Below are positions 23,008 to 54,336 of a DNA stretch of 64,000 nucleotides, one piece after another. The translations under genes and the position numbers were made by a program. The DNA comes from Daedaleopsis sinensis (lineage: Eukaryota; Basidiomycota; Agaricomycetes; Polyporales; Polyporaceae). The stretch covers positions 3,534,001 to 3,598,000 of the forward strand of contig CM066305.1 in NCBI GenBank assembly GCA_033807695.1, in the 5' to 3' direction. The notes beneath the pieces are model-generated. The model was not told where the DNA came from. It did no database searches and saw only the letters and a program-made list of their open reading frames with translations. Numbering within the stretch: the stretch's first letter is position 1; each line of letters opens with the position of its first letter.

Positions 23008-23053
23008 GCCTTTTGGCGTAGCAGTTAGTGCGTGGGATCTAGCTAGCTTACAG
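23008..23053 (+). repeat. Left half of a tRNA-derived (SINE-like) sequence
   Basis: GCCTTTTGGCGTAGCAGTTA followed by GTGCGTGGGATC resembles a tRNA acceptor strand plus an A box (TGGCNNAGNNG). The sequence stops abruptly at 23053 where the inverted repeat begins. A B-box-like remainder occurs directly after the partner repeat at 54343, and its AGGC could pair with the initial GCCT. Assignment is inferred from box motifs. Confidence 0.5.
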
Positions 23054-23782
23054 TCACCACTTATCTATAATATACAGACCAGTGGCCCATAGATTATTGT
23101 GACCTTGGCCCAGCCAATGTAGCAATGCCAGAGGCCCAGGACCCAATTACAAGGTACAATTTATAAAAGCATTATGTTGTGGATGAGCCAACAGGGAGCA
23201 ATATAAAATGCAAAAGCTATTGTAATAAGTTCCCCATGGCACATTTTACAAATGAACAAAGTGATGTCAAATGTCCCTAAGGCTGTGTTTACAACACACC
23301 CCTAGTGTTGTGAATGGTCCCCTGTGGCACATTTTTAAACAGATAGAAGGTTGTAATACATCCCGGAGACCCTGTTTACAACCCACCCCTATTGTTGTGA
23401 ATGGTCCCCTGTGGCACATTTTTTTAAACTGTTGGAGGGTTGTAATACATCTCTAAGACCCTGTTAACAACTCACCCCCTGTGTTGTAAATAAGCCTCAT
23501 GGTGCATTTTTAAACAGATAGAGGGTTGTAATACATCCCTGGGTCCCTGTCAACAATTACACACCCCAATCGGTGGGGTATAGGGTGCCCTATCAGGAGG
23601 GTAACCCCCATACTGATTGCCCTTTGAGATGGTCAAGCTATCAGTATAGATAAGAAACTGTTATCTGAAGAGATAACAAGGTGATCATATCATTATCAAA
23701 GGTCCAAAGATTTGATAACAAGCCCTAGATACCAATTACAACACTCCAGTAGGAAAGCCATAGCATATGTCTTTCTAACAGT
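23054..23782 (+). repeat. Left inverted-repeat arm (L-H-U-A)
   Basis: Sub-blocks by comparison with the right copy: L 23054-23556 (inverted in the right copy), H 23557-23626 and U 23627-23752 (both direct in the right copy), and A 23753-23782 (inverted). L ends with about three tandem units of roughly 88 bp from about 23299, each containing GTTGTGAATGGTCCCCTGTG or a variant. The right copy has one unit fewer. H has a short hairpin (ACCCCAATCGGTGGGGT). Confidence 0.75.
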
Positions 23783-24890
23783 ACCCGGTTCATGCCCATA
23801 TACTTACTGGTCACAGAGATACACACATGCTCTCCTACTCCCCCTCCCCCTACCCCAATATTGTTTGCGGTAGATCTGCTCACCACATGCATATATCACT
23901 GTCAAATCTTGAGAGTATGGTCATACATATTGCTATCTACTACCGTTGAGTTTCCAGGCTTATCGGACACAATTTACTCTACCTAATGGCTTATCAGTGT
24001 TTCCCCTGATCACACTGATCTCACAGGTTTGGGAGACCTATTCCACAGATCTCCTACCAACATGAATAGTCATTATATGTGTGAACAATGTGCAAAAAAC
24101 AGAATGTCAATATGTGGAGAATTGGTGAAGTAACTGTCCAAACAGCGAAATGTGCACTGTTTGACACTACAGCTGTACATGGCTGCACACACTGCTTGCC
24201 ACTGTAGCTACAAAACCACCTCCTACAGCTAATTCAGGTGTCCTGTGACCAATTCTACATGGATTCCTATGGTTCTCTTTGCAACATGTAGCTATATCTC
24301 TCCTCTTTATTATCTGACATTACGATTGATGAGTATACGAAGAAATCGTCCTTTATGGACGACGTTCCCAGCCAAAAGTGCAACGCGAACCTGAGCCCGT
24401 GGGAAATAACTTTAGTCTCCGAAAGCCCAGAGTAAAGGATTACATAAACGCCAGTAACAAAAAAGTAAGTAACTGATCTAATGGGCAAACCCCATGCTAG
24501 GGTTGGCCTGGCTCGCACGGGAAAATAGTAAGCGCCTGCACTGCCACCAAGCGCCCTCTATCCTGCTGCTTAGGGTCGTAGATGACCTGGTGTGTGTATC
24601 GTGGCTGCGGGCAGACCCTCAGAGTCTGCCCATCATCACTGCCAGTCTCATTCTGCCTTCTCTATCAACTAGTCCGCAGTGGCTGTCAACCGCATTTCAC
24701 ACAGCTGTAGAGTCTAAGCAGTCCTGCTTTCCTGTTTTCAATATCCAACCATTGTTAGAGACACACCATCTATTTGCAGTAAAGTAGCAGACACGTTGCA
24801 GAGATAAGCACAGAAAGCAAAAGTAAGCGATACAAAAATTTCGAGCTACATGCAGTAGAGATACATCTGTCCATGGTGCTAACCAGAGTC
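23783..24890. other. Gene-free stretch inside the left end of the large block
   Basis: About 1.1 kb with no coherent coding signal. It holds the 3' flank of gene A and a minor ORF (24267-24518 minus) with no domain. No further repeats pairing with the right side were seen. Confidence 0.5.
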
Positions 24891-27559
24891 CTACTCTAAC
24901 AGCTCTTCACAAGCACGCCGCAGGTTAGAGGTGATGACATGCGCGGGACGATACTGAGTCAACGCTGATTTCCACTCCCCAATGTTTAGCAAACTCGCGT
25001 GCCCTTCCTTGATGTCCTTTAATCTGCGTTGGAAGTAGCTCTCGTTAAAGCTTGACCAGATCCCATTGTCCATGCCCGAACTGCGCCACTGTGCCTGCCG
25101 CGGCCACCATGATACGTTCTCCGTCTGGCCATGCTGATCTATAATAGGTCCATTCATGTTAGCCTGAGTATCATACCGCCACAATGTTAGCACACCACAC
25201 TTACCGGTGTAGAGCGTGAACACGCCACTGAACACATCCTCCTCTTCCTCAGTCAGGACGTCGTCGATGTAATACATCTTGTCCTTTGTCTGGATCAGGG
25301 CGGCATGCGCTGCGACATTGTCCGATGGTCCCACAAGGACACTCTGCTGAATCTCGTGCAAAAGGCCATTGTCGTAACCCAGTACGCTCATTGCAACCCG
25401 CCAGATGATACCGCCACGCGTGAAGGCCGCACGAATGTGAGGACGCTGAAGAAGCTCCATCACTCGCAGCTCGAACGCTTGATAGTCGAGAGGTGTTGGC
25501 TTAAAACCCGCGCGTCGATAGGTCGGAAGTCTGTAACCAGGCAGAGCAAGGTCCAACGAACCACGAGCTTCGAAGTTTGCAGCGAGACGGACGGTATGAA
25601 AAGGGAGTCCCACGTCCATGAGGTGCATGACGGCCTCTGCTGCCGTCGTGATGCTCTGTCTCCTCAGCAGGTACACAACCACCACTGCTTCAACTGCCAG
25701 CAGCCAGGGAGGATACTCGTCCCGGGTGAATTGAATGAAGTAGAGATTGTGTAGCGATGCGGCAGTGATGTTCGCCCGAGTTATTCGCAGTATCCGTTCT
25801 TGCAAGCCTTCCTGCTCGAAGAGGTATGACTCGTGGCGGGGGTCAAGATCCCAGCAGTCGCGCGTAGCGTCCGTGTATAGAGCGTTCTTGATCATAGCCC
25901 AGGCAAATCCTGCATAAGTGGTCTTGGCAGACGCGTCACCCTCGACCTCGCTGCGGATCATCCCGAAGCACCTGTGGACGTTGGCGTAGAACTGGAGATA
26001 GTTTACCCCGTGGTAGGTAGACATGGTGGGATGAACACCGAAGAAGTCCTCGACAAATGTGTTGGACACCGTGACAATGACACTCTTGGTAGCGATTTGG
26101 CGGCAGATTAGCTCGAGGTCGGACACGATTGCGGAGTGGACAGTGAGGTGATGGAGAGCTCCTGCGGCTGAGACTTGCTCTCTAAGTCCCTCGGCGTCCA
26201 TGTTCTCGTCGGGCTCCATACCGGTTGCACCTAAGTCCCACGTATCGTACAGCCAGCAGTAGTATCTCTGGTCCTCGCGGTACGTTGCCCAGAGCCCGGG
26301 CACTGTGCAGGCCGGTACGAGAACTCGGATGTCAAGGTCTGCCCACTGAGGGCGTATGTCGACGTCGAGGTCACGAGCGGTAGCCCATGTATACACTCTC
26401 AGCCAGGGTGGGGGAGGACCATCTATGGAGGCTTGGGCTTGCCGACGCTGACGACGTTCACGTTGCCAGTCGGTTTCCTTGGCTTGTGCTGCGCGGGCCT
26501 GAGCCTCCAATCGCACGATGAACTTTCGGCGACTCTCTCCTGGCTGCTGATACGGACCTACAGGCCTGAGCGCGTCGACGTTGACGGAGGGTGGGTGAAC
26601 GAACATCTGGTTCTTGTGGAAAAGGACAAACACATCTCGTCGATGAGGGTAAGGGGGGTTCAAGAACGCGGCAACTCCATCATCTGCCACGGGAAGGAAC
26701 TGCTGCATGACCGGATAGCGTGCGCAGATCTTGCGAGCGGTATCCTTTAATCTCCACCAGATGAATAGGGGGATGTGGGACCTCTTGAACACGGGGAGAT
26801 GATCGAGAGCGGGGCAGTTGAGCGGGTCAATGAACACTCCAACACGAAGGCCAGGTGCGAATTTGGAGACGACAGAGTGCTGGAGGGCATCAAGCCACAG
26901 ACTGCTCATACCCTTTGACTCGAGAAACGCAACCCATGTGTGTGCTGTGGCAGGAGTTTTCACCCAGATGGCTATTGCCATGGAACATCGTGCAGCGAGG
27001 AAGAAAAAGGACTCTCTAGCACAGCGAATGGCCCTTGCTGCCTTTTGTGGGGTCCCATGGATGTCGAGATAGCCACGCTCACTGGGATCGGGCCAGTACT
27101 GCACGGGGACCATTCCACTCCTTTCGCGGTCGTGGCTTTTGAAGATGAGGAGCTCGAACGCGACGTGACAAAGCAGTGTTTCGAGCTGCTTCCACATCTG
27201 CCTGATCTCCCATGCAAGTCCCCACTCGTTCTGAGCGTACTTGATGGGGCGTAGGGCTTTGTCATCAAGAGCGAGTCGTGAGAGAAGAATGTCGGTAGCC
27301 GTGCTCGAGCGGAGAAGGTATGCCATCTCTGGGAATTCGGGCGTGAACCAACGAGGGGTCTGCATTTCTCTAAGGGACTCGGGCAGAGTAACCTTGGGAT
27401 TGGGAAGGGCGGGGATGGTGATATGGTCGGGGACATTGATGACAGTATATACAGTCTTGTCAGCGTCGCTGAAGGTGTGGATATTCTCCCTCCTATGCCA
27501 GTTAGGTGAGTGATTAATATCGCCACAGCAGAGGGATGATCATACTGTAGGACCGGCAT
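24891..27559 (-). CDS. Gene A: uncharacterised 849-aa protein
   Basis: Exons are 27559-27546, 27492-25205 and 25138-24891, giving 2550 nt, 849 aa. The 66-bp intron at 25204-25139 is open in frame but has a perfect GTAAGT donor, a GCTAAC branch site and a TATAG acceptor, so I remove it. I do not recognise the family. No signal peptide or membrane helices are evident. There is a charged Arg/Gln/Ala-rich coiled-coil-like stretch around residues 310-350 (RLEAQARAAQAKETDWQRER). Features include GVFIDPLNCPALDHLP and YYCWLYDTWDLGATG. Codon use and intron style are like the host genes, and there are no disabling mutations over 2.5 kb, so it is likely under selection. Upstream in-frame sequence could hold another exon beginning near 27611. 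Confidence 0.65.
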
Positions 27560-28160
27560 ATCGAGTTCTGTGCGTTTGAGGAGGAGACGTGGAAGGAACA
27601 GGGCGAGGGACTGTCAAAGGTTAATATTTTTCAAACAATTGCTTGCAGCTAGTATTCTCACAGTCGTATTGTGGGTGACTGAGTGGCCTCTGGTGTTAAT
27701 AGATGGCCTGTGGCAAGACTAACACGGGATATCTTACCGAGTCTTGATGTACTTACCGTTCAAGACTTTAATGATGCCATACATTCAACCAGAATGCGTA
27801 TACTGAACGCTTACCTTGAATCACGATTGTATGCACTATAATCCTTCGTACTCACAACACTTGAATGATGGGGAAACACCGGAGTCTTGTTGCCAGAATG
27901 CCAATACAAAGTTTCCTACTACTACAATACTCCGGGTACGGGTTGCTTGAGGGATAGATCTACGTTCTACAGCCGTTCATACAAGCTGGTACAACGTAGT
28001 CTATATCGCGAGTGGACCGGACGGGGAGGAAGAGTGAGGGAGCGAGGGCGAGAGGACGGTAGCAGTGGTGATGGCGAGAGGCTGGTGGAAGTGGTGATCT
28101 CGGGCCGGAGGTTGGTCGTCAAGTAGAGCGAGTGGCGGGAGTTGTCGGGTGGTGAGAGAG

Positions 28161-28290
28161 GCGACAACGGGGTGGGAGAGATGGAGGCAGGAGTGAGAGA
28201 GGCAGAGATGTCGGCAAGAGAGGCGAAGACAGCGGCGAGAGAGGCGGAGACAGCGGCGAGAGAGGCAGAGATAGTGGGGAGGGGCACGGA
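28161..28290 (+). repeat. Purine-rich tandem repeat
   Basis: About four to five imperfect copies of a 21-bp unit around GGCGAGAGAGGCGGAGACAG. It is strongly strand-asymmetric (G/A on plus). Confidence 0.7.
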
Positions 28291-28486
28291 AGGTGGCGGG
28301 AGAGGCGGGATGATGGTGGCGGAAGGGAAGGAGGGATAGGCGCCAGACTGTTCCATGGAACAGTCCCGTAAGACACGCTGAAAGCGCCTGGAACCTTCTC
28401 GATGGTTCTAGAAGCTTCCACCCACTTGAGCTCCGGACTTCGAGCCCGGATCCCGGCCTAGACGGCCAGAGATGCCTCGAGCCGCC

Positions 28487-28606
28487 TAGAATGTTCTAGA
28501 ATGTTCTAGAACATTCTATGGCACGTGAGCTCTGGGTCTCGAGCCCGGCTGCAACCAGACGTGCCCAGAACCTTCGAGAACCTTCGAGAAGGTTCCATGG
28601 CACGTG
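28487..28606. promoter_or_regulatory. Duplicated heat-shock-element array plus CACGTG module
   Basis: Positions 28487-28518 hold six alternating GAA/TTC pentamer units (GAAtgTTCtaGAAtgTTCta...), followed by TGGCACGTGA (E-box 28522-28527). Positions 28568-28595 hold six more units (GAAccTTCgaGAAccTTCga...), again followed by TGGCACGTGA (E-box 28601-28606). A weaker third copy lies at about 28390-28420 and a GTTCCATGGAAC palindrome at 28350. HSF trimers bind such inverted nGAAn arrays; the target gene is unknown (A or B). Confidence 0.55.
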
Positions 28607-28669
28607 ACTGGAGAACTTCGAACTTCGAAGTCCGCCTTTCCTCTTGTCTTCCACCACCACCACTCCCCC

Positions 28670-28945
28670 TCCCAGCTCGTCGTCCTCTGCCCTCCGCTCG
28701 TCGTCCTCCGCCCTCCGCTCGTCGTCCTCCGCCCTCCGCTCGTCGTCCTCCGACTTCCGCTCGTCGTCCTCCGCCCTCCGCTCCTCGTCCTCCGCCCTCC
28801 GCTCGTCGTCCTCCGACTTCTGCTCGTCGTCCTCCGCCCTCCGCTCGTCGTCCTCCGACTTCCGCTCGTCGTCCTCCGCCCTCCGCTCGTCGTCCTCCGC
28901 CCTCCGCTCGTCGTCCTCCGACTTCCGCTCGTCGTCCTCTGCCCG
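28670..28945 (+). repeat. 21-bp C/T-rich minisatellite
   Basis: About 13 copies of CGCTCGTCGTCCTCCGCCCTC and a CCGACTTC variant in a non-random order. The period is a multiple of 3, which explains the long multi-frame ORFs through it. It is probably non-coding. Confidence 0.85.
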
Positions 28946-29530
28946 AGTCGCCTCGTCACCTCGCCTCGCCCTTGTCGCCTCGCCCTTGTCGCCTCGCCTC
29001 TCCCTCGTCGCCTCTATCCGGCTTGTGCTCCCCCACCAAGCTCCGTATTCCGGCTGGCCTTCAACAGTGTCGGGTTCGTTGAACGGCCCGAGACTTCGAC
29101 CACTCCTGAACGTACCCGGTACCCCAAGGCCTCACTCCCCATCCCTCCGCGACTGCATAGGCTGCAGGAGTGCGTACACAGCACGCCAAGGTGAGTAACC
29201 TTTGTTCTATTCGGTAAGTTGTTCGTATACTAACTGAAAGCCCACGGTCTGTTGCTTCCCATGTCCTCTATCTACCTTGCACCCATTGTTCTTTGCCTAT
29301 AAATGCTATGTCATACCTTCTGTACGAACGTTATAGTACACTCTATGCCCTTTAGACCGACCGCTTCAACCTTTGAATCTCAGGTATGTGACTTCAACAG
29401 TTTCAACGCTTCATTGAAGGAGGCTTCAAATCTTGTAAGACAGTACTGTAAGTACACTCTCTGAGTCTTAGTACGATGTCAAGGACCTATAGTCGGTCGA
29501 TCTCTATCATGTATTAGGGAGAAGCAATCC

Positions 29531-29599
29531 TATTGGTCCGTGCGGGAATCCGTCGTTGATGGCCATCAACGACGGATTCCTGGATAGACCAATCAGGTG
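29531..29599. repeat. Perfect 36-bp palindrome within a longer hairpin
   Basis: GGAATCCGTCGTTGATGG (29547-29564) is followed with no spacer by its exact reverse complement (to 29582). Outer arms CCTATTGGTC (29531-29540) and GACCAATCAGG (29589-29599) also pair. Confidence 0.85.
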
Positions 29600-30036
29600 G
29601 CTCAGACACTAAGCACAGAGGTGCTTTTGTCTTCGAATCTGGCTGCCTTCATGAGCCTCAGATCTGTTACACACTTCTCGTCTGCTCAGTGTACATAGGT
29701 AGTATTAGAGATATAATACCGAATAGATGTGTCTATGATACACCAGGGCCTTAAGTGTAACTGAGAATTAACGAGCATTACATCAGGTATAGTGTCGATT
29801 GCCCCTGCTTGCTGATACGCAATCGATCCGACACTTTGCCCTGTTTTTTCCCCTTGAACGATACGCCCACTGCACTGACTGGTCACGCTTTGCCCTCTCT
29901 TCCTGTCGCTTTCGATCAACGGCAAACGACTTGGCCCTCTTCGACCTTGACCCTCATCTGCCAGGTCCCTGCAAACTCTCTAGCCTCCCCTCTTGCACTT
30001 CCTCCACATCCAACGACTCTGTCCTTATCAAGCACA

Positions 30037-33000
30037 ATGTCCCCTGTTGACGAATATTCTGATATGCCCGAGCTAAGGGACGTATCAGACGACTCCTCCG
30101 TCGACGAACGTGAGTCTCCACCTCCTCATATGTGGTTTGCGTTGCCAATATCGGTGCTTCAAGCCCTCAGCCGCCTCTTTCTCCATCGTGGTGTTGATGT
30201 CAATAAGTCTGGTGATCCTGAAGGTGAGTCCCCCTATCTCCAGCGTGTTCTTTATGACCTACGTCTACCACACAAGCCCGCCGCCGTATCCACCCGCCTT
30301 CTGGCTCGGAAGCCATTGTCCTCCCTGGTCGTCATGGTCGTCTGCCCGTTATGTACCGTGTCAACTCCCACCCCCAGCTCTCCCATGTCGACGGTGTACG
30401 CAACATATACATCTACCTGGAGGACACTGACCCAGACTCTATGCTGGAGTACCTGGAGTTCGTCGAGCAGCTCGTGCTGCCCGATGGTACCCAGAAGGGC
30501 GTTCAGGAGGCAGGTAAGCTCTGTTGATCCATGCCGCTGCTATATATGTTATACTAATCATATGCAGGCTACTTGGTAATTGCCCCGGGCGATTACATAT
30601 TTGCACGCGATGTCTGGGGCTCTGGCAAAGCTGAGGACGATGTTGTCCAGGCATGGGTCACGCCTGAGTAAGTTGTTTGTGTTTGTGACAAGCTATATCA
30701 TTCATTCCTTTCCTCCAGAGGTCTCATCGTCGGTTCTCTGGCGGAGGAAATGTCCGCCGCCAGGGATGCTGTTCTCGGTACTGCTGAAGACAGGTCCCCC
30801 CAGAAGGCAACCATCGTCAATGGAGAATATGTCGGCGGGATCGCTTGGGAGCGCGACAGCAAGGCAGTCAACATACACAACTCTGAACGCGCGTACAGCC
30901 TCGCCCAGAGCTATCAAATCCAGAAGAACCTGGCAGGTCCGACTGTGGGCGCGAAGATCCCTGCCACAGAGCCTACTGAGCATAACAACCTTCGGCATCA
31001 GACCATCCAGGTACGTCACCATACACTGTAGACTCTGCATACATATTTATATCTTTGCTTTACAGGCTGCGGCTCCTATCGCTATCACTAGTCTCGAGAG
31101 TGGCCCGCGCGGCCTCTGCGATGCCCTCCGTCTACAGGCAGAGGTCACGAACATGCCTCGTGTCGGGTACGAGGGGAACTACGCCTTCCCCACCATGCAA
31201 CTCAACATTGCGTCGACTAAATCATCGGACACCCTGGCCGGTACGTACAGGGTTCATCTCCTGTCATGTGCTGTGAGGCTAACGCACAATATTGTTAGCT
31301 GCACACTTCAAGGACGACCTTGGTCAGTTCGCGGGCAAGCACGTCGACAAGCATGACTCCGCTGGAGGTTACACATGTATGATCGCGATGAACGATCTCG
31401 CGGAGGGGGAGGACCCTGGTTACTTCATGATAGCGGAGCTCGGGGTTGCGATTGGTACGGACGAGTCTGAGCCCATCATTGTCCTGTAATTGTGCTTACT
31501 GTATGTTGCTATATTGTTTCAGTACTCAACGGTCTCGTCAGTTGCTGCTTTTCTGGGCTGCGCTATCACGGTGGCTTCCCCCCCACTGCTCCGGCTGGAG
31601 TTACGCCTCCCGACTGGTCCTACCGCTTTGTGGTGGTGTGCTATCCATCCGCCTCGATCCTTGATGGCTCGTCGCTTGTGGCCTTTGGTGCTCTACCTAA
31701 GGGAGAGCTTCTGGCTATCACACCTGAGATGAAGGATCCTAGGTAGATACATGTATGTTCTAGTGCTCGCATGTGTATTAACGGTTGAATGTACCAGTTA
31801 CGATCATGTGAAAGCTGGTACCAACTGCGCGAACTGGATCGCCGATGGTCCTTGTCTCACCACACGTCAAGCATACTTAGACTTCATCTATCGCGCCAGT
31901 GGAGAGCTTGTCTACTACCTCACGAACCAAATCCCTTCAGACATCCAGTTTGAGCTCGACTTTGACGTTCTACGTCAGTCTATGTCTCTGCTAGATGAGA
32001 GCGGCGGGCGCATCACTCCCACGGCGTGGGATTTACATCCAGGATCGTCACACAAGTCTGCGGTCTTTGACTGCTCTCGCAAGGACAGTGTCAAGTTGTG
32101 GAATGAGCACAAGAAGAAGCTCGGCAAGTTCATGCCACATTATGTCTTCACCGAGACCAAGCCCGGTACGTCTCATGTTGAAATGTGACATATTATCTTG
32201 CACTGACATTGAATAGATGAACACCCCCGGCTCAAGAACGCTCGCACTGGCCGCTCTACACACAGTTCGTCAATAGTGAGCTATGTGTGATACAGGTCAC
32301 TGACTACCTGTATTTTCAGAGACTGCGAAGGCAAAGCATCCTCCTGCTGCGAAGAAGCCACTGCAAGATGATGCTGCAGACTCAGGAGAAGACGCGGACG
32401 AAGACCAGGATGAAGACGATTGGCCTGAAGAAGACGAGCTCAACCCCTGGCAGTCTGACGACAGCGAGAATGACCATGCAGCACGTCTCGCGCGTCCCAG
32501 CACTCTCGAAAAGGGGAAACGAAAGGAGATATCCTTGTCAGATGAGTCTAGCAGAAAATCGAAGAGACTCCGGATGAACTCTGCCCAGACGGAGCAGGGT
32601 ATGTGATGTCATTGCCTGTTATCACTGAGACTAATGTAGACTTTAATGTGTACTTATAGACTACAACGGGCTTGTTCCTGGGGCAAGCGAGCAGGCCGGG
32701 GGCTCTGGATCATCGGGAACACTGCACATCGAAGTTGGCCATGGGATCTTGCAAGATGTTCATGAGCCGCGTCGCGTCCGTGTTCTAGCTGTTAAGCGTT
32801 AGTCCTTGTGTATGGCGCGACTATGTTGAACGCACTAATGCATTTGCTATAGCCAATTCTGATCAAGTCAGCTTCAAGGAGAGTGCCATTGCAGCATCGA
32901 CGTTCGTTGAGCGCAACGTGAACCCCGATCCAAGTATCGGTGAACCATTTGCATTGTCAGACGTCCCTGCCTCGCAACGTACGTGCAATTTTGTTGTTGT

Positions 33001-35062: not shown

Positions 35063-35186
35063 ATTGATAGGTGGCCGGGCAGATGTAAGTAGATTAGAAA
35101 GATGTTAAGTGTAGACTGAACGAACGTGCTGAATGTAGTGGTATGTGCGAGAATGTAGACAACTGGTAAGATACTAGAGCAGAGAA

Positions 35187-40161: not shown

Positions 40162-41059
40162 TTCTAGCTACATATTTCTTTGCTTTATCTTGCTCGTCTT
40201 CCCCTCTCCGTGGTATGTGTCTCAGTAGAGCTATGTATAACATCTTCAACAGACGTTCTCTTATGGTATTTTGTGCTCTTCTTCTACACAGCTCGCCGTC
40301 TACCACATCTCTCCCCTCCCTACGCATCTTCTTCTCTCACCCCCTCCGTAGTTGGTCAATGCACCATCCTGCTTGATGTATGGACTTTCTAGTCACCGCC
40401 ATGTAACGTGTTCTTGAACGCGCTTTACTTATACCTGACAAAATAAAGCGATTCATCTGGCCTACCCGGGATCCCCGTAAGAGTCTTTATACCGCCGACA
40501 AAGTAACGAAGTTTGGAGATTTATTCGTTGCTTCTGAGAAACACGGTCACATGATTTATGAACATGCACGTGAGAGTTGGTTCGAGTTGAGTTTAACGCC
40601 GCTTCCTTAGACTTGAACTGCTTTCCACATCGTCAACTAGACCCATTCACTGCTCAATATGCCTCAGTACTCACCGAAAACCCTGCTATCTTGGCTGTGG
40701 AAGAGCATTTTAATGCTCTTGATCAGCAAGGTGCTTGTAGTGTGCCGAGGAGCACCATACACCTCCGTGTCCAAACCAAACCCTATCAGATCTGTTATAG
40801 ATGTTGAGGTTGATAACATTTCTTGTACGCATTCCATATACTCCAATCCAAGGGTCTTTGCTAACTTACTTCCCTAGTAATCTACTCTACATCTGTCCCT
40901 ATACCCTGCCACTGTAACATTCTGCAGTGGTCTGGTTATGAATCGTATAGCGCTTCTTGTGCTTTGGGTTTTGCAGACGCCCCCTTGAAAAGTGCTGCGC
41001 CCTTTTTGGGCAGGGTTTTGGGAGGCACCCTCTTGGCAAGCACTCCCCCATATAATAAA
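40162..41059. other. Gene D 3' flank and Helitron leader
   Basis: Holds 3'-UTR-like sequence to about 40450 and then AT-rich sequence. A plausible Helitron 5' terminus (TCTACTCTACATCTGTCCC at 40884) and a TATAATAAAA box at 41051 precede the first in-frame ATG. The exact Helitron start is not proven. Confidence 0.4.
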
Positions 41060-47000: not shown

Positions 47001-47443
47001 AGTGCAAAATGCCGAATGGACGTATTCTTGAAATTGAAAGAGACCAAGTCCCAGTTGTACCCAACTTTGCAATGACGGACTTTGCTTCACAAGGACGTAC
47101 ACGGCCATTTAATGTGTGTGATCTACAAAACTGCAGATCCCACCAATCGGTCTACACTTGTCTCTCTCGAGGTTCAACACTTGATGGAACTATTATTGTT
47201 CAGGCATTTGACTCCAACAAACTGACTGGAGGAATAGCTGGTAGTCTCAGGCAAGAGTTTCATGAGTTAGAGCTACTTGATGAGATCACCAAGCTACGAT
47301 ACTTGGGTAAAATTCCCCCGCATGTGGTTGGTATAACTCGCAATGAACTTATCCATTCATTCAGGTGGTGGAAGAGGGAGAAGTTTGTGCCTAGGACTAT
47401 GCATAGTGGGTCCAGTGGAGTAACAAGGAACCATTCCCATTGA
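41060..47443 (+). CDS. Helitron Rep-helicase (HUH replication initiator + PIF1-like helicase)
   Basis: About 2127 aa without stops. It nicks and joins single-stranded DNA ends and unwinds them during rolling-circle transposition. Visible modules: a Cys-rich N-terminal segment (ACCACGMLTVHSELH), a Helitron-like N domain (GGYILADRHKFQDIAR, SWFITFAPADVKHPLALY), HUH motif LTLHLHMLLWI near residue 803, and the two-tyrosine motif AYVADYITK near 1013. The SF1B helicase follows with Walker A GMAGTGKSQ near 1591 and Walker B YIFVDEVSMVD near 1665, GDFAQLPP, and C-terminal SQGRTRPFNVCDLQNCRS and YTCLSRGS. The start used is the first ATG; the frame is open further upstream and the true start may be later (several Met by 41377). 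Confidence 0.85.
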   Translation: MYTLEPGVRAPLLYIESELYLNKMYKIRTTISVIRFRLHQSARYKHDLKVLLQRILTSHTNYRKRSYFSTIYTKQSISSHPTCYGGERPSNRRNNGGKGTTRSWSMAELLQYSIVGDLHDNMHFRFLSYNLKNSFAANSTTIGVNLPVSLLSSKLTKPALLDVALKHGISNVNMHHSKSYIASQLVVHRCMVCPEYISVFQAIGVVKTSTQRSDARRSQKRSAINSEKVAFPPPPLTGKLEETIVREYAEEICINNFLESACCACGMLTVHSELHSMEDKELDLSPLVPDGPVMRQERNSSHDPIVEIPGPVLLPDCSDICSKCLKDVEQGKMPNESLANGLWVGEIPPQLQDLSWTEKMLISRVKHNICIVKVHVSGMSKMKANVVSHSLPMPKVYSVLPPAREDLDEVLAFLYIGPNVLTHKEFKRTPMLVRRNKVKEALEWLKLNHTDYADLDISYSNLDEYPEDEPPVIVNYTQSMESNKDPEATAVNDTEEDEGIEQGDCPFVVHGLTGTNLNKLAEVRPYEITARAVEHFKSNGKALGIGQAKEPESIYDNPQLYPQMFPWLFPYGLGGLNNMCSHGTKVVSEERRKQQLLMYHDKRFQLEPLFPLVALNHEQIKKSTTGGYILADRHKFQDIARRILSIDLPTLRDLVERMKSGPVKAETEAEKECFKVLNDLDHVNHHVQGSITSKKYMRNEIWSMVSYLGAPSWFITFAPADVKHPLALYMADTNQTYLPKFRTQDERMRLIASNPVAGARFFNVMVQLFLKHVLGEGLDRPGLYGDTAGYYGTVEQQGRLTLHLHMLLWIKNSLTPQEIRERIMDPDSAFQKEMVEYLESVHKGEFLQGDMESVAERLEKAKIKNPFRVPATERLPQVLPVRCTHASRSDCDACTAYHKWRAEYEDEVDEILYASNVHKCTTRNRKDYISKGAQNGLQEVDNRGCTDPVTKVCKARFPRDTFTETAVDPDSGALIMKKGEPWLNTFTPSASYLLRCNHDVTSLLSGTAIKSVIAYVADYITKTPLKTRVMFQSIQKVFERNVELIGGDRTAKDKARSLVTKMVNALTATSEIGGPIAAMYLLKHPDHYTGHKFRACFWRGYVLEIMRAWEDSKDISQEGRSTVVVDAEKGNADGPKRIVALSPVIDYMNRPVEFEHLNVYDWVRRYHKRSIPKGRRKTIFLQHNPNDAYETDEFEDNYHVDEGIPRNLATGNSDQLEDEEPEVAGNSDDEISDNEETTCYGGGKLMPAVPDDDSDDELLLTSKTNAKLECEVRIAMDNQTRANTPSYFNFSAKHPQARTHEVCLLDEKESFVPNFIGGAIPRKDAGSREEYCMTMLTLFKPWRSGRDLRPNSETSWSDIFESHIFTKREQEVMKFFHIRYECNDARDDFSAQRKQAEKGSANPMYMSNSDMDEIDTQAIVFDAANREDDIVNAEDWDQDSTAEILRKSRMATAENVMKISGWMDRMDGPSEEQKSTLPRRLRPDNPATDWKTLLDNLRKDILDARAAEASKKKDNPGDQLPENDAINQVKLVDKQYFLSKEFEGHDPQAKELIDSTVASFSLNEEQERVFRIVANHAVQSCGEHLKMYLGGMAGTGKSQVIKALSHFFAERQESYRFMCLAPTGSAAALIGGSTYHSMLGFRSKDSTESISSIQQVRDRLRLVQYIFVDEVSMVDCGSLYKICAKMCAAIQNDGAPFGGINMIFAGDFAQLPPAMCGKALYAHDVGRVIHRTHDHNKQKASIGKALWHQFTTVVILRQNMRQRSQTPEDAKLRTALENLRYRACTKDDIQLLKSRVAGRGPNNPKLNQPNFCNVSVITSWNSYRDKINELGCKRFARENRTVLKSFYSIDKLTSETDPSEITKKVRAKRVNPKRKNNIVNEKLQDTLWGLSHHLTEHHPGTLELCVGMPVMIKVNEATECCVTNGAEAVVVGWTTRPIPNAEDKFALETLFVKLTAAPTTVKVDGLPENVVPLTHSKRKVKCKMPNGRILEIERDQVPVVPNFAMTDFASQGRTRPFNVCDLQNCRSHQSVYTCLSRGSTLDGTIIVQAFDSNKLTGGIAGSLRQEFHELELLDEITKLRYLGKIPPHVVGITRNELIHSFRWWKREKFVPRTMHSGSSGVTRNHSH

Positions 47444-47520
47444 ACCCAGTAACAGAGGATAGCCCATGGACGGTAATCAAACTATCTAAGGCAGACACAG
47501 ATGCAAGCAAGCAAGCGGCC

Positions 47521-48561
47521 ATGAAACGTGATACCACAAATTTTGTCAGTGCAAAAGGCACTCAGGCATTAAATAATGTCAGCAATGCAGTGATCAAGCA
47601 CAGTGCGAAACGTAAACGTTCTATGGAAGAGGATGAGATAGACAATACATCAAAGAAAAAGGTTAGACAGATTAAAGCCAAACCGCCACCCAAGGGGAAG
47701 ACCTTTAGAGGAATCCCTTGGGATAAGGACAATTGGAGTTGTGCGTACGATAGCATGTTGACTATACTCTTATCAGTATACACAGAGTGCCAAGATGCTT
47801 GGAGAACAGGAGCATCACCACAAAGTGATGTCCTTCTCAAAATGGAGCAGGCATTCAAGCAATCTCTGGCCACACCGCCGACAATGACCGTCATTCAGGC
47901 GAGAAATCAAATCAGAGATATGCTGGGTTGTGAGAATCCTGAGTTGGCTGCCCGAGGGAAGACATATACTGATCTCTATGAGCTAGCTGAGAGACTACTA
48001 GCAGTAGATAGAGACATCCTTACCAAAACTAACATTTGCCGGTGCTGTGATTATAAGTCAGATGTTAATCATTCGTCACAAGTAATGTGGACATGTATAG
48101 AGAACACATGGAAGAATAATCCAGAGAAGTTAGGTACATATAGAGGTAAGACAACATCAAAATGGATACATGCATTGAGAACACAGCAAAGAGAAACTCC
48201 TTGCCCACACTGCCGTTATCCAATGCTAAGATATAGAGAATACAATGCTCGGCCTCCATTCATCTCATTCATCATTGATGGACACAAAATGCGATTGGAT
48301 TACCAGATTGTTTTTCCAGAAGTAGATCAGATGTATAGACTCTGTGGAGTGGTATACATTTCCACTGGAGAGCTCACCAAACACTTTGTGTGTAAAGTCA
48401 TTGACAAGTCAGGCGGTATATGGTTCCATGACGGTGCTCTCCCAGGCAATGCGGGTGAGAATGTTACATATAATGACAACATCATCCACCTACCTTATCA
48501 AAAGCTACAAGCTATCAAGAAGGACTATGTGATGACTCTAGCAATCTATACTAGACTGTAA
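47521..48561 (+). CDS. Helitron second ORF, cysteine-protease-like
   Basis: 346 aa from the first ATG; the frame is open from 47440 and overlaps the helicase stop by 4 nt. A basic N-terminus (HSAKRKRSMEEDEIDN) is followed by GIPWDKDNWSCAYDSMLTIL with candidate nucleophile Cys74. Paired Cys clusters (CRCCDYK, CPHCR) suggest zinc binding. GGIWFHDGALPG near residue 300 could supply the His/Asp, a layout like ubiquitin-hydrolase or OTU-type peptidases. The function is inferred. Comparable GIPWDxxNWSCAYDS ORFs accompany fungal Helitrons. Expression could be by a separate start or by frameshift from the upstream ORF. Confidence 0.6.
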   Translation: MKRDTTNFVSAKGTQALNNVSNAVIKHSAKRKRSMEEDEIDNTSKKKVRQIKAKPPPKGKTFRGIPWDKDNWSCAYDSMLTILLSVYTECQDAWRTGASPQSDVLLKMEQAFKQSLATPPTMTVIQARNQIRDMLGCENPELAARGKTYTDLYELAERLLAVDRDILTKTNICRCCDYKSDVNHSSQVMWTCIENTWKNNPEKLGTYRGKTTSKWIHALRTQQRETPCPHCRYPMLRYREYNARPPFISFIIDGHKMRLDYQIVFPEVDQMYRLCGVVYISTGELTKHFVCKVIDKSGGIWFHDGALPGNAGENVTYNDNIIHLPYQKLQAIKKDYVMTLAIYTRL

Positions 48562-48946
48562 TAGATTATTCCTCACAGAACACTTGTATTTAATCATACA
48601 TCAACTATTGTATTCTAATGTACTCACCCACTATACTCATCAATCGTACCGTGCCAGACCTGGCCTACTTCCCCACAAGTTGTGCATGGCTATCAGAGGT
48701 GGTAGGATAGCACAATTCACTAGATATTGGTCACAACTGATAAGAAAACTATATACCAGCAACATCACCGATAAGGGTAGCTATGCATGATCTGGACTAG
48801 GCTAAGTAATAGGAGGCTATTGAAGAAAGAATGATGACATTCAGTAATTGGTAGAGCAAGATATGGGGTAAATAGTGCTAAGATGTGGTACAAGGATAAG
48901 ATGTGTGTATCTCCATCACCGCTCAGTGTATGGGGATAGGTAGCAA
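48562..48946. other. Helitron 3' flank
   Basis: AT-rich, no ORF of note. A short hairpin (GCCAGACCTGGC near 48655) is the only structure seen. Confidence 0.4.
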
Positions 48947-49060
48947 ACTGTTAGAAAGACATATGCTATGGCTTTCCGACAGTGTCTTACACACCCCAAT
49001 TGGTGGGGTATAGGGTGTACACCCTATCAGGAGGGTAACCCCCATGCTGATTGCCCTTTG
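48947..49060 (-). repeat. Right arm, inner part (A' and H blocks)
   Basis: A' (48947-48977) is the reverse complement of the left-arm A block. H (48987-49060) matches left H in direct orientation and includes the perfect 18-bp palindrome ATAGGGTGTACACCCTAT. Homology stops at 49060 where an insertion begins; it resumes at 53810. Confidence 0.75.
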
Positions 49061-49883
49061 TATATAGATCAGTGGGCTGCATGGCCATGCACACTGCTGA
49101 TCCGAGGTGTATTATAATAGACACCCTTAACACAAAAAGAATCACATTGATTGATTAGGAATTGGTGGAGGTATACCCCGGACAATCTGGGGTAGGGTAG
49201 GAGGAGCACCGGTGCATATCTAGGGTTCCTGTGGATGGATCTGCATGTATGAGGGCTCTTTGGAAAGCCTTACTATAGCTCTTTCCAAGAGTACTTTGTA
49301 CCTGATGATGCACCCACCGGTTACTCAGCATTTACTATCCCAATAAAGCGACTATTTCTACCTATTGCAGTGCACTGAATGAAGGGAGTTGTACCTGCAT
49401 ACTGTACAGCATAGTAGCCATTCAGTATACAAGTATACCACAACTTGAATGGAGGGGATCCATCAAGAAATGAGGGAGGTAAGGGGTGAGGAAGTGGGCC
49501 CCCTTGGGGTAGCCCAGCCACCTACCTGCCTAAATGAGGTAATAAGGTGTGGTAAAAGGTGTCAAATAAGCACCCAGTTGCGTGGTACAGTTGCGGACAG
49601 TCAAAGTCGACAAAGGTGGTTTGGGACTGATTGTGGGCCAAAATGAATTATTTTTGGCCAAGTCTTCTCAGAAAAGGGTTCAGGATGGCTGAATGTGTTC
49701 AAAAAACCACTTCCGAAGTTTTTCCCATGAGAAATGATGGGCAGCCAAATTTTTGGACCATCTCAGAGACAAGCACCTAGTAAGGAACACTATATATGGA
49801 CTCTACTGTGGGTTCAAAATGTCTGCAATAGCCATCATTGCGGTCTTAGAGACCTGCCAGTGCTGTTTCTGTTCTCTTAAAGC

Positions 49884-52800
49884 TCATGCGGCCGCTGCTC
49901 CGGTCAGCCCCATACGGTAAGCATCCATAAAGCGCCAGCTCTTGTTCATGAAGCAGCGGATTACATCAACCAGACAGGCATCCAATACATTGAGTGCCGC
50001 CTGCTTGGCCTTGTCAAAGCTCTTCTTGATGACCTCCCGGTAGCGGTACTTCGACCAGCCCTAGTACTATAGTAAAGTTAGCACAGTACTATATTAGTGG
50101 GCTACAATATAAGCAATTGCACTTACCATCTCGATTGGATTGAGTTCACAGTGGAACTTCGGCAGAAATATGCACTCATGCCCTGTTTGCTTGATGACTT
50201 GCTCGAGCATTGACTCTTGGTTGGCAAAATCATCCTGCTAACTCAGGAGCCAAGCCATACAGCAGTCATTGTTGCTGACCGGGCAAACTGGTGAACACTT
50301 TGCTCGCAACTTCTTGACATTGAAGCCACACTCCGTGAGAACTTGCTGAAGACCCTTTGGTTCCACATTATCAAGAGTCATCTTCTGAGGCTTCCCCCGA
50401 AATTCAGCATGGATGTTGGTCATTGGAATGACTGTGTTGTGCTGCTTCCATGGCTTGCCCCCGTTTGACTTGTTCATCTCGAAGGTGCAAAGCACATCTA
50501 GTGCAAGAGAAGTGTGTGCAGAGGATTGGTCAAAGATGAAGAGGGTGACACTCTTGGGGGAGCCGACCACACATCCATCTACACACGGCCGGTCTAATAG
50601 GCCAGCCCGTGTGTAGACGGGCATGCTGTGCTGTACGACTTGCGGGATTGGTGGGAGCAGCACGAGACATGCGGGAGCCTGCATCACGCATCACTGCCAT
50701 CAGCGTGCGCAGACAGTTCGGAACAGCCTCCCGCCCGCCATGCAGGTCGGAGGTACGCCTTGCCACCCATCAGATGGCCCCTGGCTCAGAGCCTCGCATG
50801 CGCACTGTCAATGTACGGCTGGCATGGCACATGCGCTGAGATGGTATCTATACACATCAAGTTGTGGTGTGCTGGAAGTTATGCACACTGTACAGTGTAC
50901 GTGGTGGACACCAGAGGGATAGTAAGTTTGACACCGACACGTGCGCAACCGCACGAGCAACATCGGCAACCACACGAGGAACACCCAGCACTGGACAGGT
51001 AGGTAATGTCATAATGATGCGATACTGGTGATCAAAGAATTTCTAGCTACTACTGCAGATCCCTGGCCCCTTTTATATGGGACTGGCCTACAGACCAAGG
51101 CGAAAGCTGCAATCCAGAACACAGGAGGACGAGACAGGCGGGAGGATGTGCAACATTGGGTCTGGAGAGCGCGGCCGGGAGCCGGTGGGAAGCCATTTGG
51201 GATGGGCAGGTAAACTGACTACAATATTAGCGCTGTATGTTACTGCTATCATAGTGCGGCAAACTGAAGCTCTGCTGGCCCAAATCGTGCGGCAGGTAAT
51301 GCGGAACATGTATTGGAACATTTGGTAATATAATGAGGAATATAGAATAGGGACAGGGACCATGAGGGCCGGGGCAAGATAGGCGGGCCTGTCTGCAGGC
51401 GGGCTGGCCTAATAGATGGGCCGTGTGCACATGAGTGTGTGGACTATACCTTGGGGTGTGCTGTTTCAAAGATTTTGATTGCCTTCTTTACCTGTTCAAT
51501 GAGCTGATCTGTATTCCACCACGCATCACCATTAGATCCTGGATAGATGATCTTCCTTGCATTCTCGACAATGCTGCCATCCGTATCACGGAGAATGAGC
51601 CGGCTGGTGGCTTCCATGATGAAGTTCTGAGACATGGATAAGGTGTTCTTGTCCCTTCTTCTGTAGAATTGTTCCACCATGGGGTAGCCTGGTAGAGACA
51701 ATAAACTCTGAGCATATATATGCCATGATAACTAAAGAATAATCACTCACCATGCAGTACACTCGTAGTCATTATCGTGGAAGCAGCATTCATCGGGGAA
51801 TATGGCCATAATCCTCCGCTCACCAGGGGCCAGTGAGGCAGGGACATGTACAAGCTCAGGGCCCTCATACTTGTCCATGCATCTCTCATACTAGAGCATG
51901 TGGGGAAGGAAGACCTCATTGCAATAGGTCACCACATCCGAATGCTTGTGGCCATCCATGTACACACCTTTTAGCAAGATGGTCAGAGCCCATTCGAGCT
52001 TAACAAGCCAGCGGTGAGCAGTCCATACTGAAAGAGGACTGCGGATGGGGATGTTGAGGGAAGGGAGGATGACCGTGTTGAGGGCATGTCAGAATGACTG
52101 TGGTGTGACCATGCTGGCAGTCTGCACTATAAGCCAGTCCCATGAAGTACGCTCGACTGCTTCATCATGAAGATAGGACCGTCCCTCCTGTCTGCCACCA
52201 TGCTTTTCAGCAAGGAGTTTCTCAAAGATCTGATAATGATGTGCAAGGGCACGAACACAGTGTACGAAGTGGGTCCCCTCACCCTCGTGCCATTGTCGAG
52301 CTATCTCTATACTTGCTGCGATGCGACCAAAGCCCTTCAAGCATAAAGTGGCAAAGTTACAGAGGATGCTGAACTGATTGAGTTGTGCGAGGGTTAGGTT
52401 CTGGTGTGACTTCTTCATAGCGCACTGAATCTGGGTGCGGAGGATGTCCCATCCCCGTATCTCCTCTGTGTTTCCCCCACTCATCTTGTCCATGATGTCT
52501 TCCTCGATCTCCAAACCTTGTGCGTGTTCTTCATTCCAATCCTCGTCTTCTTCAGCATCAACGGAAGCCAGCTCTCGGGCATCAGCCGCTGGCTCAGCTT
52601 GAACCAAGGACCGCTCCAGCCTGTCAGACCCATTTGGCAGGTGAGCGTCTTCGACAACACTCCGAGTTGGTGAGCCTGTGTGGCCATCATCTGGCTCACT
52701 GATTGCACCATCAAGCAGCTGTGAAGATAAAACATAAGCTCTATATATATCCATGCATCGACTGCTTGAATCCTCACCATAGGGCTTGAACAACGCAAAC

Positions 52801-53642
52801 TCGGCAGGCCTGGGCTTGACACAGGCTCAGGCTCAGACGGCAGCTGACCGGGTTCTTCTGGTGGCTCCGGAGAGCCTGAAGGAGATAGCAAATCGGCAGC
52901 TGGTGAAAGAAGCATGGACTTCGGCTTGAGAAAGCTGTCAAGGTTGGTTTGATCTTGAATAAGAGACCGGTGTCAGTGTTGGGTACAAGCTGACTTGCTC
53001 ATGACATCGAGTCCCTTCTGGTACTTGGTTGGACGTGCTGGAGATGCAGATTAGTATGGACTCTGTCACAAATATTGTATTCCAAGGGAGACTGACACTT
53101 TTTTCAAGCAGCATTTTTCTTTCTCTGCCAAAGCACTTTGGGAGGGACCCACTCCTCATCGGCAAGGTGCTCAACGAGGAGAGCCATCATCTCTAGCCCT
53201 CCCACATCTCCGAGTTCCTCCCAATCCGAGTCCTCATCCAGATCTGTATCAGCCTCATCCATAGCAAGCTCAGGCTTAAGGCTGTCATGTATGCAGCAAG
53301 ACCTCCATTCCGGGTCCTCATTGTTGGCATCGGCAGCTCCAGGTGAGCTTCCACGGCTGTCAGTGTGCTCGGAACGCTCGAGAAGCTCTTCTCCAAAGGG
53401 CTTGGGCTGGTTCCGGAGCCTGGAGATATTTCTGGATCATTTCGGAGGACATCCATGACCCATGGTTGTAGGTAGGAGCTCAGGTGTTGTCGCTGCTCTC
53501 GACAATGAATTTCTCGATGGATTTCCGAGCTTTCAATGGAATCATGTACAGAATTGGTAATGCTATTGATTGCACCATTTTCTGGGTTTCTAGCACTAAA
53601 TTTGGCAGTACGGCCAAATTTTGGGCCCCGAAAACCTAACAC
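49884..53642 (-). pseudogene. Tc1/mariner-like (DDE_3-type) transposase, broken
   Basis: Minus-strand fragments in order: an acidic N-terminal region (53642-52480), NTVILPSLNIPIRSPLSVWT and LLKGVYMDGHKHSDVVTYC (about 52070-51910), and a first catalytic Asp in IMAIFPDECCFHDNDYE (about 51790). Then KIIYPGSNGDAWWNTDQLIE (51540), the second Asp in LFIFDQSSAHTSLALDVLC (50530), and the third acidic residue in CIFLPKFHCELNPIEM (50150), with KYRYREVIKKSFDKAKQAA beyond an intron and a terminal stop at 49884. Several stops and frameshifts plus a 0.9-kb insertion between the DAWW and DQSSAH blocks show that it is dead. Confidence 0.8.
50561..51449. mobile_element. 0.9-kb TIR element nested in the mariner-like transposase
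   Basis: It splits the transposase reading ...FETAHPK | SVTLFIFDQ... at a point where both flanks carry CTTGGGG (50553-50559 and 51450-51456), i.e. a 7-8 bp target duplication. The ends are imperfect inverted repeats of about 50 bp sharing CACACGGCC and TAATAGGCCAGCCCG (left) / TATTAGGCCAGCCCG (right, reverse complement). The duplication length suggests a hAT-like origin. Non-coding. Confidence 0.7.
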
Positions 53643-53809
53643 TTGACTTTTTTAGATAACAGCTGGTTGAAATCTACTCAGAGCTACATTGTCCGCATCA
53701 TTTACACTGTATCTACGCATCTAGCAGGTTTTAACACCCTATGTAAATGAGTCAAAAAGGTTGTCGACTTTGACTGTCCGCAACTATATTGATCCCAGGG
53801 TAGTAGATC

Positions 53810-54336
53810 AGATGGTCAAGCTATCAGCATAGATAAGAAATTGTTATATGAGATCATGTCATTATCAAAGGTCCGAAGATTTGATAACAAGCCCTAGATA
53901 CAAATTACAACACTCCAGTAGTTGTTGACAGGGTCCCAGGGATGTATTGCAACCCTCTATCTGTCTAAAAATGCACCATGAGGCTCATTTACAACACAGG
54001 GGGTGAGTTGTTAACAAGGTTTTAGAGATGTATTACAACCCTCCAACAGTTTAAAAATGTACCACAGGGGACCATTCACAACAATAGGGGTGTGTTGTAA
54101 ACACAGCCTTAGGGACATTTGACATCACTTTGTTCATTTGTAAAATGTGCCATGGGGAACTTATTACAATAGCTTTTGCATTTTATATTGCTCCCTGTTG
54201 GCTCATCCACAACATAATGCTTTTATAAATTGTACCTTGTAATTGGGTCCTGGGCCTCTGGCATTGCTACATTGGCTGGGCCAAGGTCACAATAATCTAT
54301 GGGCCACTGGTCTGTATATATATAAATAAGTGGTGA
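53810..54336 (-). repeat. Right arm, outer part (U and inverted L blocks)
   Basis: U (53810-53921) is direct relative to left U, with about 10% differences and a 14-bp gap. L' (53922-54336) is the reverse complement of left L, with about 220 bp apparently identical and one 88-bp tandem unit fewer. It ends TAAGTGGTGA at 54336. Confidence 0.75.

What the first reader, a model, noticed from the sequence alone, without database searches (positions are those of the whole stretch)
23054..54336. Candidate 31-kb giant transposable element carrying four host-like genes
Inverted arms about 30 kb apart share an apparently identical ~220-bp stretch (left about 23088-23310, right about 54089-54310). Both start TCACCACTTAT at the outer edge and are flanked by TTACAG/TCACAG. 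The interior holds intact multi-exon genes A-D rather than ordinary transposon genes. Giant cargo-carrying elements are established in Ascomycota (Starships, with tyrosine-recombinase captains); a TIR-bracketed equivalent in a basidiomycete with unknown genes would be new.
Basis: partly seen in the sequence, partly recalled or inferred. Interest (0 to 1): 0.88.

Follow-up and report, generated by a model that had tools for sequence, protein, structure and literature searches.

The report
Giant gene-carrying Helitron inside another transposon
The 31-kb 'element' is a small decayed mushroom transposon into which a 24-kb rolling-circle transposon has inserted; the big one carries its own set of genes, probably including a DNA-demethylating enzyme, and its relatives are scattered through the same genome.

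Summary
The inverted arms are real, but they are the terminal inverted repeats of a short non-autonomous KDZ-type transposon (cargo-free copies of 3.2-3.4 kb; an 11-kb relative has a KDZ transposase ORF). Here it is split by a 24,360-bp Helitron-like element (24320-48679) and a 4.2-kb TA-flanked insert. Empty sites fix the Helitron's ends: six relatives are continuous across the insertion point, and 33 of 40 scored matches to a sister copy's joined flanks cross the joint; no target duplication. Pairing ends by coordinate gives 18 copies, mostly 24-30 kb; gene BC was found in 18, gene A in 16. Three copies read in full share gene order A, BC, D1, D2, RepHel. BC's N-terminal part models, at low confidence, as a TET/JBP dioxygenase. 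The window copy looks like a mosaic: 85% identical to the C10 copy from 35222 on, almost unalignable as DNA before; trees support this only partly. The TIR-bracketed giant is refuted, but a giant multigene rolling-circle element is there: a new variant of Helitron2-like elements.

The parts
23045..24319 (+).
   Evidence: alignment (23053-23560, 23776-24321); ends; CpG observed/expected 0.13 for 23045-24321
24320..48679 (+). Helitron-like element, 24,360 bp, TTACGATTGATGAG...CACAAG, followed by T, no target duplication
   Evidence: sister-copy empty site
24321..24333 (+). 5' copy of the 13-nt asymmetric terminal inverted repeat, TACGATTGATGAG
   Evidence: all 12 five-prime ends looked at start TTACGATTGATGAG
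24346..24362 (+). Possible 5' hairpin TCGTCC-TTTAT-GGACGA, seen by eye
   Evidence: sequence; not folded
24894..27539 (-). Gene A, unknown family, open frame of 882 codons; start codon not determined; an in-frame 57-nt stretch near the 3' end may be an intron, because the gene is broken there in most other copies
28612..29020 (.). 21-bp tandem repeat between A and BC
   Evidence: family D1
30258..35062 (+). Gene BC, multi-exon, approximate model: N-terminal TET/JBP-like dioxygenase part, C-terminal part of unknown fold
35220..36273 (-). Gene D1, approximate; minus-strand pieces 48-65% identical in protein to the C7 copy
37276..40161 (+). Gene D2, multi-exon, approximate model; no Pfam family for the C7 version
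40865..47443 (+). RepHel open frame: DUF6570, Helitron_like_N, PIF1
47407..48561 (+). C-terminal part of the same protein in the C7 and C10 copies, put out of frame here; protease-like only by a recalled Cys/His motif
48636..48648 (+). 3' copy of the inverted repeat, CTCATCAATCGTA
   Evidence: exact in 8 of 10 three-prime ends printed, one change in 2
48653..48664 (+). 3' hairpin GCCAGACCTGGC, 15 nt before the end
   Evidence: exact in 10 of 10 three-prime ends printed; differs in the C7 subfamily
48680..49587 (+). Middle piece of the KDZ-type transposon
   Evidence: CpG observed/expected 0.20
49588..53786 (.). 4.2-kb insert with TIRs of about 26 bp (25 of 26 match) and a TA duplication; Tc1/mariner-like by its ends
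   Evidence: sequence; five ORFs scanned, none with a Pfam match at E up to 0.01
53787..54345 (+).

Best explanation
This is a nest of three transposons. Shown: the ends, the empty sites, the gene content of three copies, the many relatives. Inferred: the giant moves by rolling-circle transposition driven by its RepHel protein (nick at the 5' TT end, peel off one strand, stop at the 3' hairpin and CACAAG, join in front of a T without target duplication). Inferred: A, BC, D1 and D2 are long-standing parts of the element, and BC, a TET/JBP-like dioxygenase, most likely oxidises methylated bases on the element's DNA and helps it escape silencing. Inferred: elements exchange cargo half and replication half, giving mosaics such as the window copy. 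The window copy is probably no longer autonomous, because a frameshift separates RepHel from its C-terminal part.
For: KDZ pieces and breakpoints; empty site continuous in six loci, one of them the source of the probe; C10 empty site, 33 of 40 scored matches cross the joint, 7 at the top score; shared ends in 12 of 12 five-prime and 10 of 10 three-prime ends; RepHel domains; 18 end pairs with BC in 18 and A in 16; same gene order in three copies; dN/dS 0.15-0.26 for A in the 11 of 15 pairs where it could be computed; TET/JBP entries at ranks 1-21 of the PDB fold search; two copies identical over 2001 nt whose flanks differ; identity jump at 35222.
Against: The window's KDZ target duplication agrees at only 4 of 7 bases. 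The TET model is weak: pLDDT 56, TM-scores below 0.5, no sequence-level match. No function was tested. The RepHel tree does not reject grouping the window with the cargo clade (p 0.274), and the BC tree does not quite reject the RepHel grouping (p 0.0645). The dN/dS values rest on saturated dS. A lone BC gene without A, RepHel or the ends exists at C8, so BC is not found only in this element.
Confidence: 0.8

Rival explanations
1. No recombination: A and BC simply evolve much faster than the D-RepHel half, which would explain why the window and C10 copies differ in one half and not in the other.
For: Among C4, C7, C9 and C11, A is only 43-60% identical in protein while RepHel DNA of C4, C9 and C11 is 79-81% identical to C7. 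The RepHel tree does not reject the cargo grouping (p 0.274).
Against: The window's A is closer to C4 (55%) than C4 is to C7 (45%), against the RepHel grouping; the A tree rejects the RepHel grouping (p 2.7e-4); the identity change at 35222 is abrupt and falls just past the BC stop; dN/dS of A is low where computable.
Confidence: 0.25
2. The TIR-bracketed 31 kb is one giant unit moved by a KDZ transposase.
For: Both TIRs are present in the right orientation, and a KDZ transposase ORF exists elsewhere in the genome.
Against: The family is cargo-free elsewhere; the 24.4-kb insert has its own ends, empty sites and relatives outside KDZ arms; the KDZ ends are decayed here.
Confidence: 0.03
3. BC and the other genes are passengers or host-serving genes (for example regulating host DNA modification), not tools of the element.
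For: A lone BC gene exists at C8:3391000-3399500 without A, RepHel or ends, with two near-identical lone copies by score.
Against: BC lies in 18 of 18 and A in 16 of 18 end pairs, and gene order is the same in three copies at 34-51% protein identity.
Confidence: 0.2

Closest known systems
TET-positive transposons of fungi, including Helitron2 of Agaricus bisporus (PMC12730594; abstract, passages and sections 3.2 and 3.4 seen)
   Same: A Helitron2-like element of a mushroom that encodes a TET/JBP-like enzyme, proposed there to counter methylation
   Different: Those sections report PE-type enzymes (hallmark HxE) from A. bisporus transposons and only Kyakuja as TET-positive in Polyporales; BC has HxD, gives no sequence match to solved CcTet and is joined to a large C-terminal part. 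The size of that Helitron2 was not seen.
HELPO1 Helitrons of Pleurotus ostreatus (PMC4289320; passages seen)
   Same: Basidiomycete Helitrons carrying 1-4 extra genes, several of unknown function
   Different: There the extra genes lie downstream of RepHel; here upstream, with one gene set kept across subfamilies and 24-30 kb in length. The review PMC6431247 (passages) gives 14 kb for fungi but up to 39 kb for maize Helitrons with gene fragments.
FoHeli / Helitron2 of Fusarium oxysporum (PMC5148889; abstract and passages seen)
   Same: Asymmetric terminal inverted repeats, hairpins, no target duplication
   Different: 5-11 kb; ends TCAG/TGCCT...; no comparable gene set in the passages seen
Helentrons with VTD or OTU deubiquitinases (PMC9741609; passages seen)
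   Same: RepHel joined to a further enzymatic part
   Different: Those carry a C-terminal AP endonuclease; no endonuclease was found here, and the protease reading of the C-terminal part has no library support
KDZ transposons (PF18758)
   Same: The arms: a relative with the same ends has a KDZ ORF (E 4.5e-34) and 7-bp duplications
   Different: The window copy is non-autonomous, broken and decayed
Starships of Ascomycota (recalled; search listing and abstract start of PMC12134995 only)
   Same: Large fungal mobile elements carrying whole genes
   Different: Tyrosine-recombinase captain there, RepHel here

Membership tests
Helitron superfamily | RepHel protein (Rep plus PIF1-type helicase) | tested here: met
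   Helitron_like_N 3e-33 and PIF1 2.1e-25 in 40865-47440
Helitron superfamily | Insertion without target duplication | tested here: met
   KDZ site and C10 joined flanks, 33 of 40 scored matches cross the joint
Helitron superfamily | Hairpin shortly before the 3' end | tested here: met
   GCCAGACCTGGC 15 nt before the end; 10 of 10 ends printed; by sequence, not folded
Helitron1 (canonical) | 5'-TC and CTRR-3' ends, A^T target | tested here: not met
   TT...CAAG ends; base before the element A in 7, G in 4, T in 1 of 12; base after it T in 10 of 10
Helitron2 | Asymmetric terminal inverted repeat | tested here: met
   TACGATTGATGAG at 24321, its reverse complement at 48636
Helitron2 | Hairpin at both ends | tested here: inconclusive
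   3' clear; 5' TCGTCC-TTTAT-GGACGA seen by eye at 24346-24362
Helitron2 | RepHel groups with Helitron2 proteins in a tree | not tested
   No reference RepHel sequences were held
Helentron | AP endonuclease domain | tested here: not met
   No such family in P0001 or P0002; the C7 and C10 RepHel frames were not scanned whole
TET/JBP dioxygenase | Fold | tested here: inconclusive
   Ranks 1-21 of the PDB search are CMD1, CcTet and NgTET, best E 3.2e-5, but pLDDT 56 and TM below 0.5
TET/JBP dioxygenase | HxD...H metal residues and a later R (recalled motif) | tested here: met
   HVD, RYHGG and YRF in the window model; in alignment A1 the D is missing in P0011 of 8 rows
TET/JBP dioxygenase | Oxidises 5-methylcytosine | not testable with these tools
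   Needs an enzyme assay
KDZ transposon (the arms) | KDZ transposase in the family | tested here: met
   PF18758, E 4.5e-34, in an 11-kb relative with the same ends
KDZ transposon (the arms) | Target duplication at this copy | tested here: inconclusive
   4 of 7 bases agree; 4 of 4 other single-element pairs are perfect
Starship | Tyrosine-recombinase captain | tested here: not met
   No recombinase family in A, P0001, P0002, P0004, the C7 BC and D2 models or a D1 piece

The most novel reading that the evidence does not exclude
A lineage of giant rolling-circle transposons in mushrooms carries a fixed counter-silencing kit: a new type of TET/JBP enzyme (HxD, with a large unknown C-terminal part), three further unknown proteins and a RepHel with an added C-terminal part. 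Its members swap cargo half and replication half, so it evolves by modules, much as some phages do.
Probability: 0.38. Interest if true: 0.78.

Novelty: new variant of a known kind. Interest (0 to 1): 0.62.

Why it matters
Capture of full-length genes by Helitrons is described as exceptionally rare, and fungal ones as reaching 14 kb (PMC6431247, passages). Here 18 end pairs suggest a family of mostly 24-30-kb Helitrons that keeps a gene set across deep divergence, so the extra genes look like working parts. A TET-like enzyme unlike the types described in the sections read of the survey found (PMC12730594) makes transposon escape from DNA methylation testable. Copies identical over 2001 nt with different flanks point to recent movement, so a living system may be at hand.

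Tried and rejected
Rejected: the single TIR-bracketed giant; the TTACAG/TCACAG duplication; Polinton/Maverick, considered from memory because of long TIRs (7-bp duplications and a KDZ relative instead; no polymerase or integrase); two separate genes B and C (one gene in the models).

Led nowhere: the first gene-finding script chained everything together; the second ran BC through into D2 in the window, so gene limits there are approximate and lean on comparison with the C7 and C10 copies. Fold of the BC C-terminal part: pLDDT 46, not searched. Library support for a protease: none (weak rows such as RING2 at E 0.28 and NolB at E 0.0044, below its cut-off, were read as chance). Other weak Pfam rows also read as chance: PUB10_N 0.041, Pox_VP8 0.09 and Pannexin_like 0.52, Rpc31 0.039, ABATE 0.16, UreE_N 0.19. 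The C3:2511221 relative: the piece upstream (L064) is Gypsy-like and shows no similarity. Gene A: one distant relative, P0005, unnamed source. The A1 profile search gave 6 proteins, 3 of them new. In the three protein searches only about 8000 candidates each were scored.

Dropped before counts: L013/L014 from the duplication count; 5' or 3' ends without a partner from the 18 pairs (for example C8:2824570, C3:1753548, C11:298598); rows under 60 nt or 78%; rows under 30 aa, rows whose match began more than 11 nt from the 5' end or stopped more than 9 nt short of the 3' end. L032 and L034 were missed and added. L023 matches the KDZ empty-site probe only in part.
Full report
What was checked. The arms exist: 334 nt and a further 140 nt, each 95% complementary, about 30.5 kb apart. 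But the arm is a genome-wide repeat, 86 matches in the host's 51.6-Mb, 24-contig assembly, a lower bound. Complete short copies have the arms at both ends of 3.2-3.4 kb (L009, L010, L011). There the end reads CACCTGTGG-TCACCACTTAT, and 4 of 4 single-element pairs, an 11-kb relative included, have perfect 7-bp target duplications (L013/L014 left out because its flanks mirror each other). An ORF of the 11-kb relative matches KDZ transposase at E 4.5e-34. In the 3390-bp copy the longest open frame is 143 codons. So the arms are KDZ TIRs of a non-autonomous branch.

The nest. A 3390-bp family copy aligns to the window as el 9-514 at 23053-23560, el 1298-1837 at 23776-24321, el 1836-2733 at 48680-49587 and el 2732-3389 at 53787-54344. 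Apart from a rearranged, deleted stretch near the left TIR, the family sequence is continuous but for a 24.36-kb and a 4.2-kb insert. Six loci run across the 24-kb insertion point without a break: L009, the source of the probe, L010 and L011, and L012, L017 and L018, which are 2.3-kb relatives; L023 matches only in part. The 4.2-kb insert has TIRs of about 26 bp and a TA duplication; five ORFs scanned gave no Pfam match.

The giant. Its ORF at 40865-47443 has DUF6570, Helitron_like_N and PIF1. Its first 681 nt match 38 places, mostly over the first 43-236 nt, and its last 300 nt match 26 places. All 12 five-prime ends looked at, the window included, begin TTACGATTGATGAG. Of 10 three-prime ends printed, 10 have the exact hairpin, 8 the exact 13-nt inverted repeat and 8 CACAAG (the others CGCAAG and TGCAAG), and 10 are followed by T; these were picked by similarity to the window. 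The C7 subfamily differs: GCCAGGAATGGC and ACCAAG. The joined flanks of the C10 copy gave 40 scored matches of 79 candidates; 33 cross the joint, 32 of them over all 344 nt, 7 at the top score. So there was neither duplication nor loss. For the C7 copy a paralogous stretch at C4:2074260 spans the joint at 89%, with about 11 extra bases somewhere in it.

The family. Pairing 5' ends with 3' ends by coordinate and strand gives 18 pairs. Subfamily II has ten: nine of 24.25-24.51 kb, one of 33.5 kb. Subfamily I has eight: 24.4 (window), 26.9, 27.3, 27.3, 28.2, 28.2, 30.4 kb, and one of 56.1 kb that encloses a subfamily II copy. A was found in 16 of 18 (not in the pairs at C10:3106983 and C9:1545285), BC in 18 of 18, RepHel as a match of at least 600 nt in 16 and of 75 nt only in 2 (probe from subfamily II). 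Only three copies were read in full: window, C10 (L029-L031) and C7 (L049-L051). All three have A(-), BC(+), D1(-), D2(+), RepHel(+); for C10 the strand of D1 rests on DNA similarity to the window. In C7 RepHel and the C-terminal part form one frame of 2638 codons; C10 has an in-frame stop near the start; in the window a frameshift near 47410 separates the two parts. Two C7-chromosome copies are identical over 2001 nt, but the flanks of one are not found at the other, which points to recent movement.

The genes. BC relatives: 8 proteins in one search, from Lentinus brumalis, Cerioporus squamosus, Earliella scabrosa and Daedaleopsis nitida, all Polyporales, and one from Pluteus cervinus, Agaricales. 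P0006, P0008, P0011 and P0012 carry both parts. Whether they lie in Helitrons is unknown. A model of P0009 (pLDDT 56, pTM 0.61) has TET/JBP proteins at ranks 1-21 of the PDB search, best E 3.2e-5, but TM-scores are below 0.5. Sequence searches were blank: no Pfam family worth the name for A, BC, D1 or D2, no PDB sequence for P0009 at E up to 10. HxD, H and R are present in the window model. The protease reading of 47407-48561 is a recalled motif without library support.

Constraint. dN/dS: A 0.15-0.26 in 11 of 15 pairs, BC C-terminal part 0.14-0.25 in 10 of 15, RepHel 0.074 in 1 of 3; in the other pairs dS could not be computed, and where it could it was 2 or more except for RepHel (0.80). This argues for selected genes, roughly.

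Mosaic. Window and C10 align at 85% over 35222-41048 and 41346-48680; upstream only the first 233 nt align (77%), and A and the BC C-terminal part are 33-34% identical in protein. Trees: A puts the window with C4, C7, C9 and C11a (100/100; with C4 96/96), BC likewise (100/100), RepHel with C10, C6b and C11b (100/100). Tests: A rejects the RepHel grouping (p 2.7e-4), BC does not quite (p 0.0645), and RepHel does not reject the cargo grouping (p 0.274) (8 rows each, RepHel rows of 281-510 aa). I read this as recombination just past the BC stop; the trees alone do not prove it.

Composition. CpG observed/expected: 0.13 and 0.20 in two KDZ pieces, 0.24 in L009, but 1.0 in the L015 part of the 11-kb relative; 0.43-0.51 in RepHel and the C-terminal part; 0.82 in D1 (window only); 0.62-0.78 in D2; 0.84-0.96 in A and BC. 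This fits methylation-driven decay of the old KDZ pieces. The contrast inside the Helitron is unexplained and may be codon use.

Literature. PMC12730594 (sections 3.2, 3.4): Helitron2 with TET in Agaricus bisporus, PE type marked by HxE, Polyporales TET-positive only for Kyakuja; that the A. bisporus Helitron2 enzyme is PE type I take from its abstract and section 3.2.3 together. PMC4289320 (passages): HELPO1 with 1-4 captured genes. PMC5148889 (abstract, passages): FoHelis of about 5-11 kb with ATIRs. PMC9741609 (passages): deubiquitinases in Helentrons. PMC6431247 (passages): up to 14 kb in fungi, 39 kb in maize. The listings (open-access library, only the top rows of some) showed no title or abstract start describing a 24-30-kb Helitron with a fixed gene set; supplements, preprints and subscription papers were not seen.

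Verdict. Ordinary part: the arms are a KDZ transposon with nested insertions. Unusual part: a large, recently mobile, multigene Helitron2-like family with a probable TET-like enzyme. New variant of a known kind.

Noticed in passing
window 58001-60000: Strong GC skew (-0.335 over 2 kb), not explained.
   Followed up: no
L013 and L014 (C6:3607700-3626100): Two KDZ copies with their flanks mirrored about 16 kb apart: a palindromic duplication or an assembly artefact. A subfamily II Helitron 3' end lies at C6:3621712.
   Followed up: no
L065:1631-6851 (C8:3391000-3399500): A lone BC gene without A, RepHel or Helitron ends; near-equal scores at C4:3880181 and C9:429941 suggest a second mobile carrier of BC.
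   Followed up: partly
G000:C12:2543883-2599995: A subfamily I end pair that encloses a whole subfamily II pair (2555497-2579950): one giant nested in another, by coordinates only.
   Followed up: no
L045 (C10:966450-967700) and C12:2517563-2522836, C8:2800292-2805565: Short elements of 1.05 and about 5.3 kb with the Helitron ends: apparent non-autonomous derivatives.
   Followed up: no
window 24894-48558: CpG is depleted in RepHel (0.43-0.51) but not in A and BC (0.84-0.96), also in the C10 and C7 copies.
   Followed up: partly
window 28612-29020: Array of a 21-bp unit between A and BC.
   Followed up: no
L064 (C3:2521500-2529499): A Gypsy-like retrotransposon lies upstream of a Helitron 3' half whose last 300 nt are 94% identical to the window's.
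   Followed up: partly
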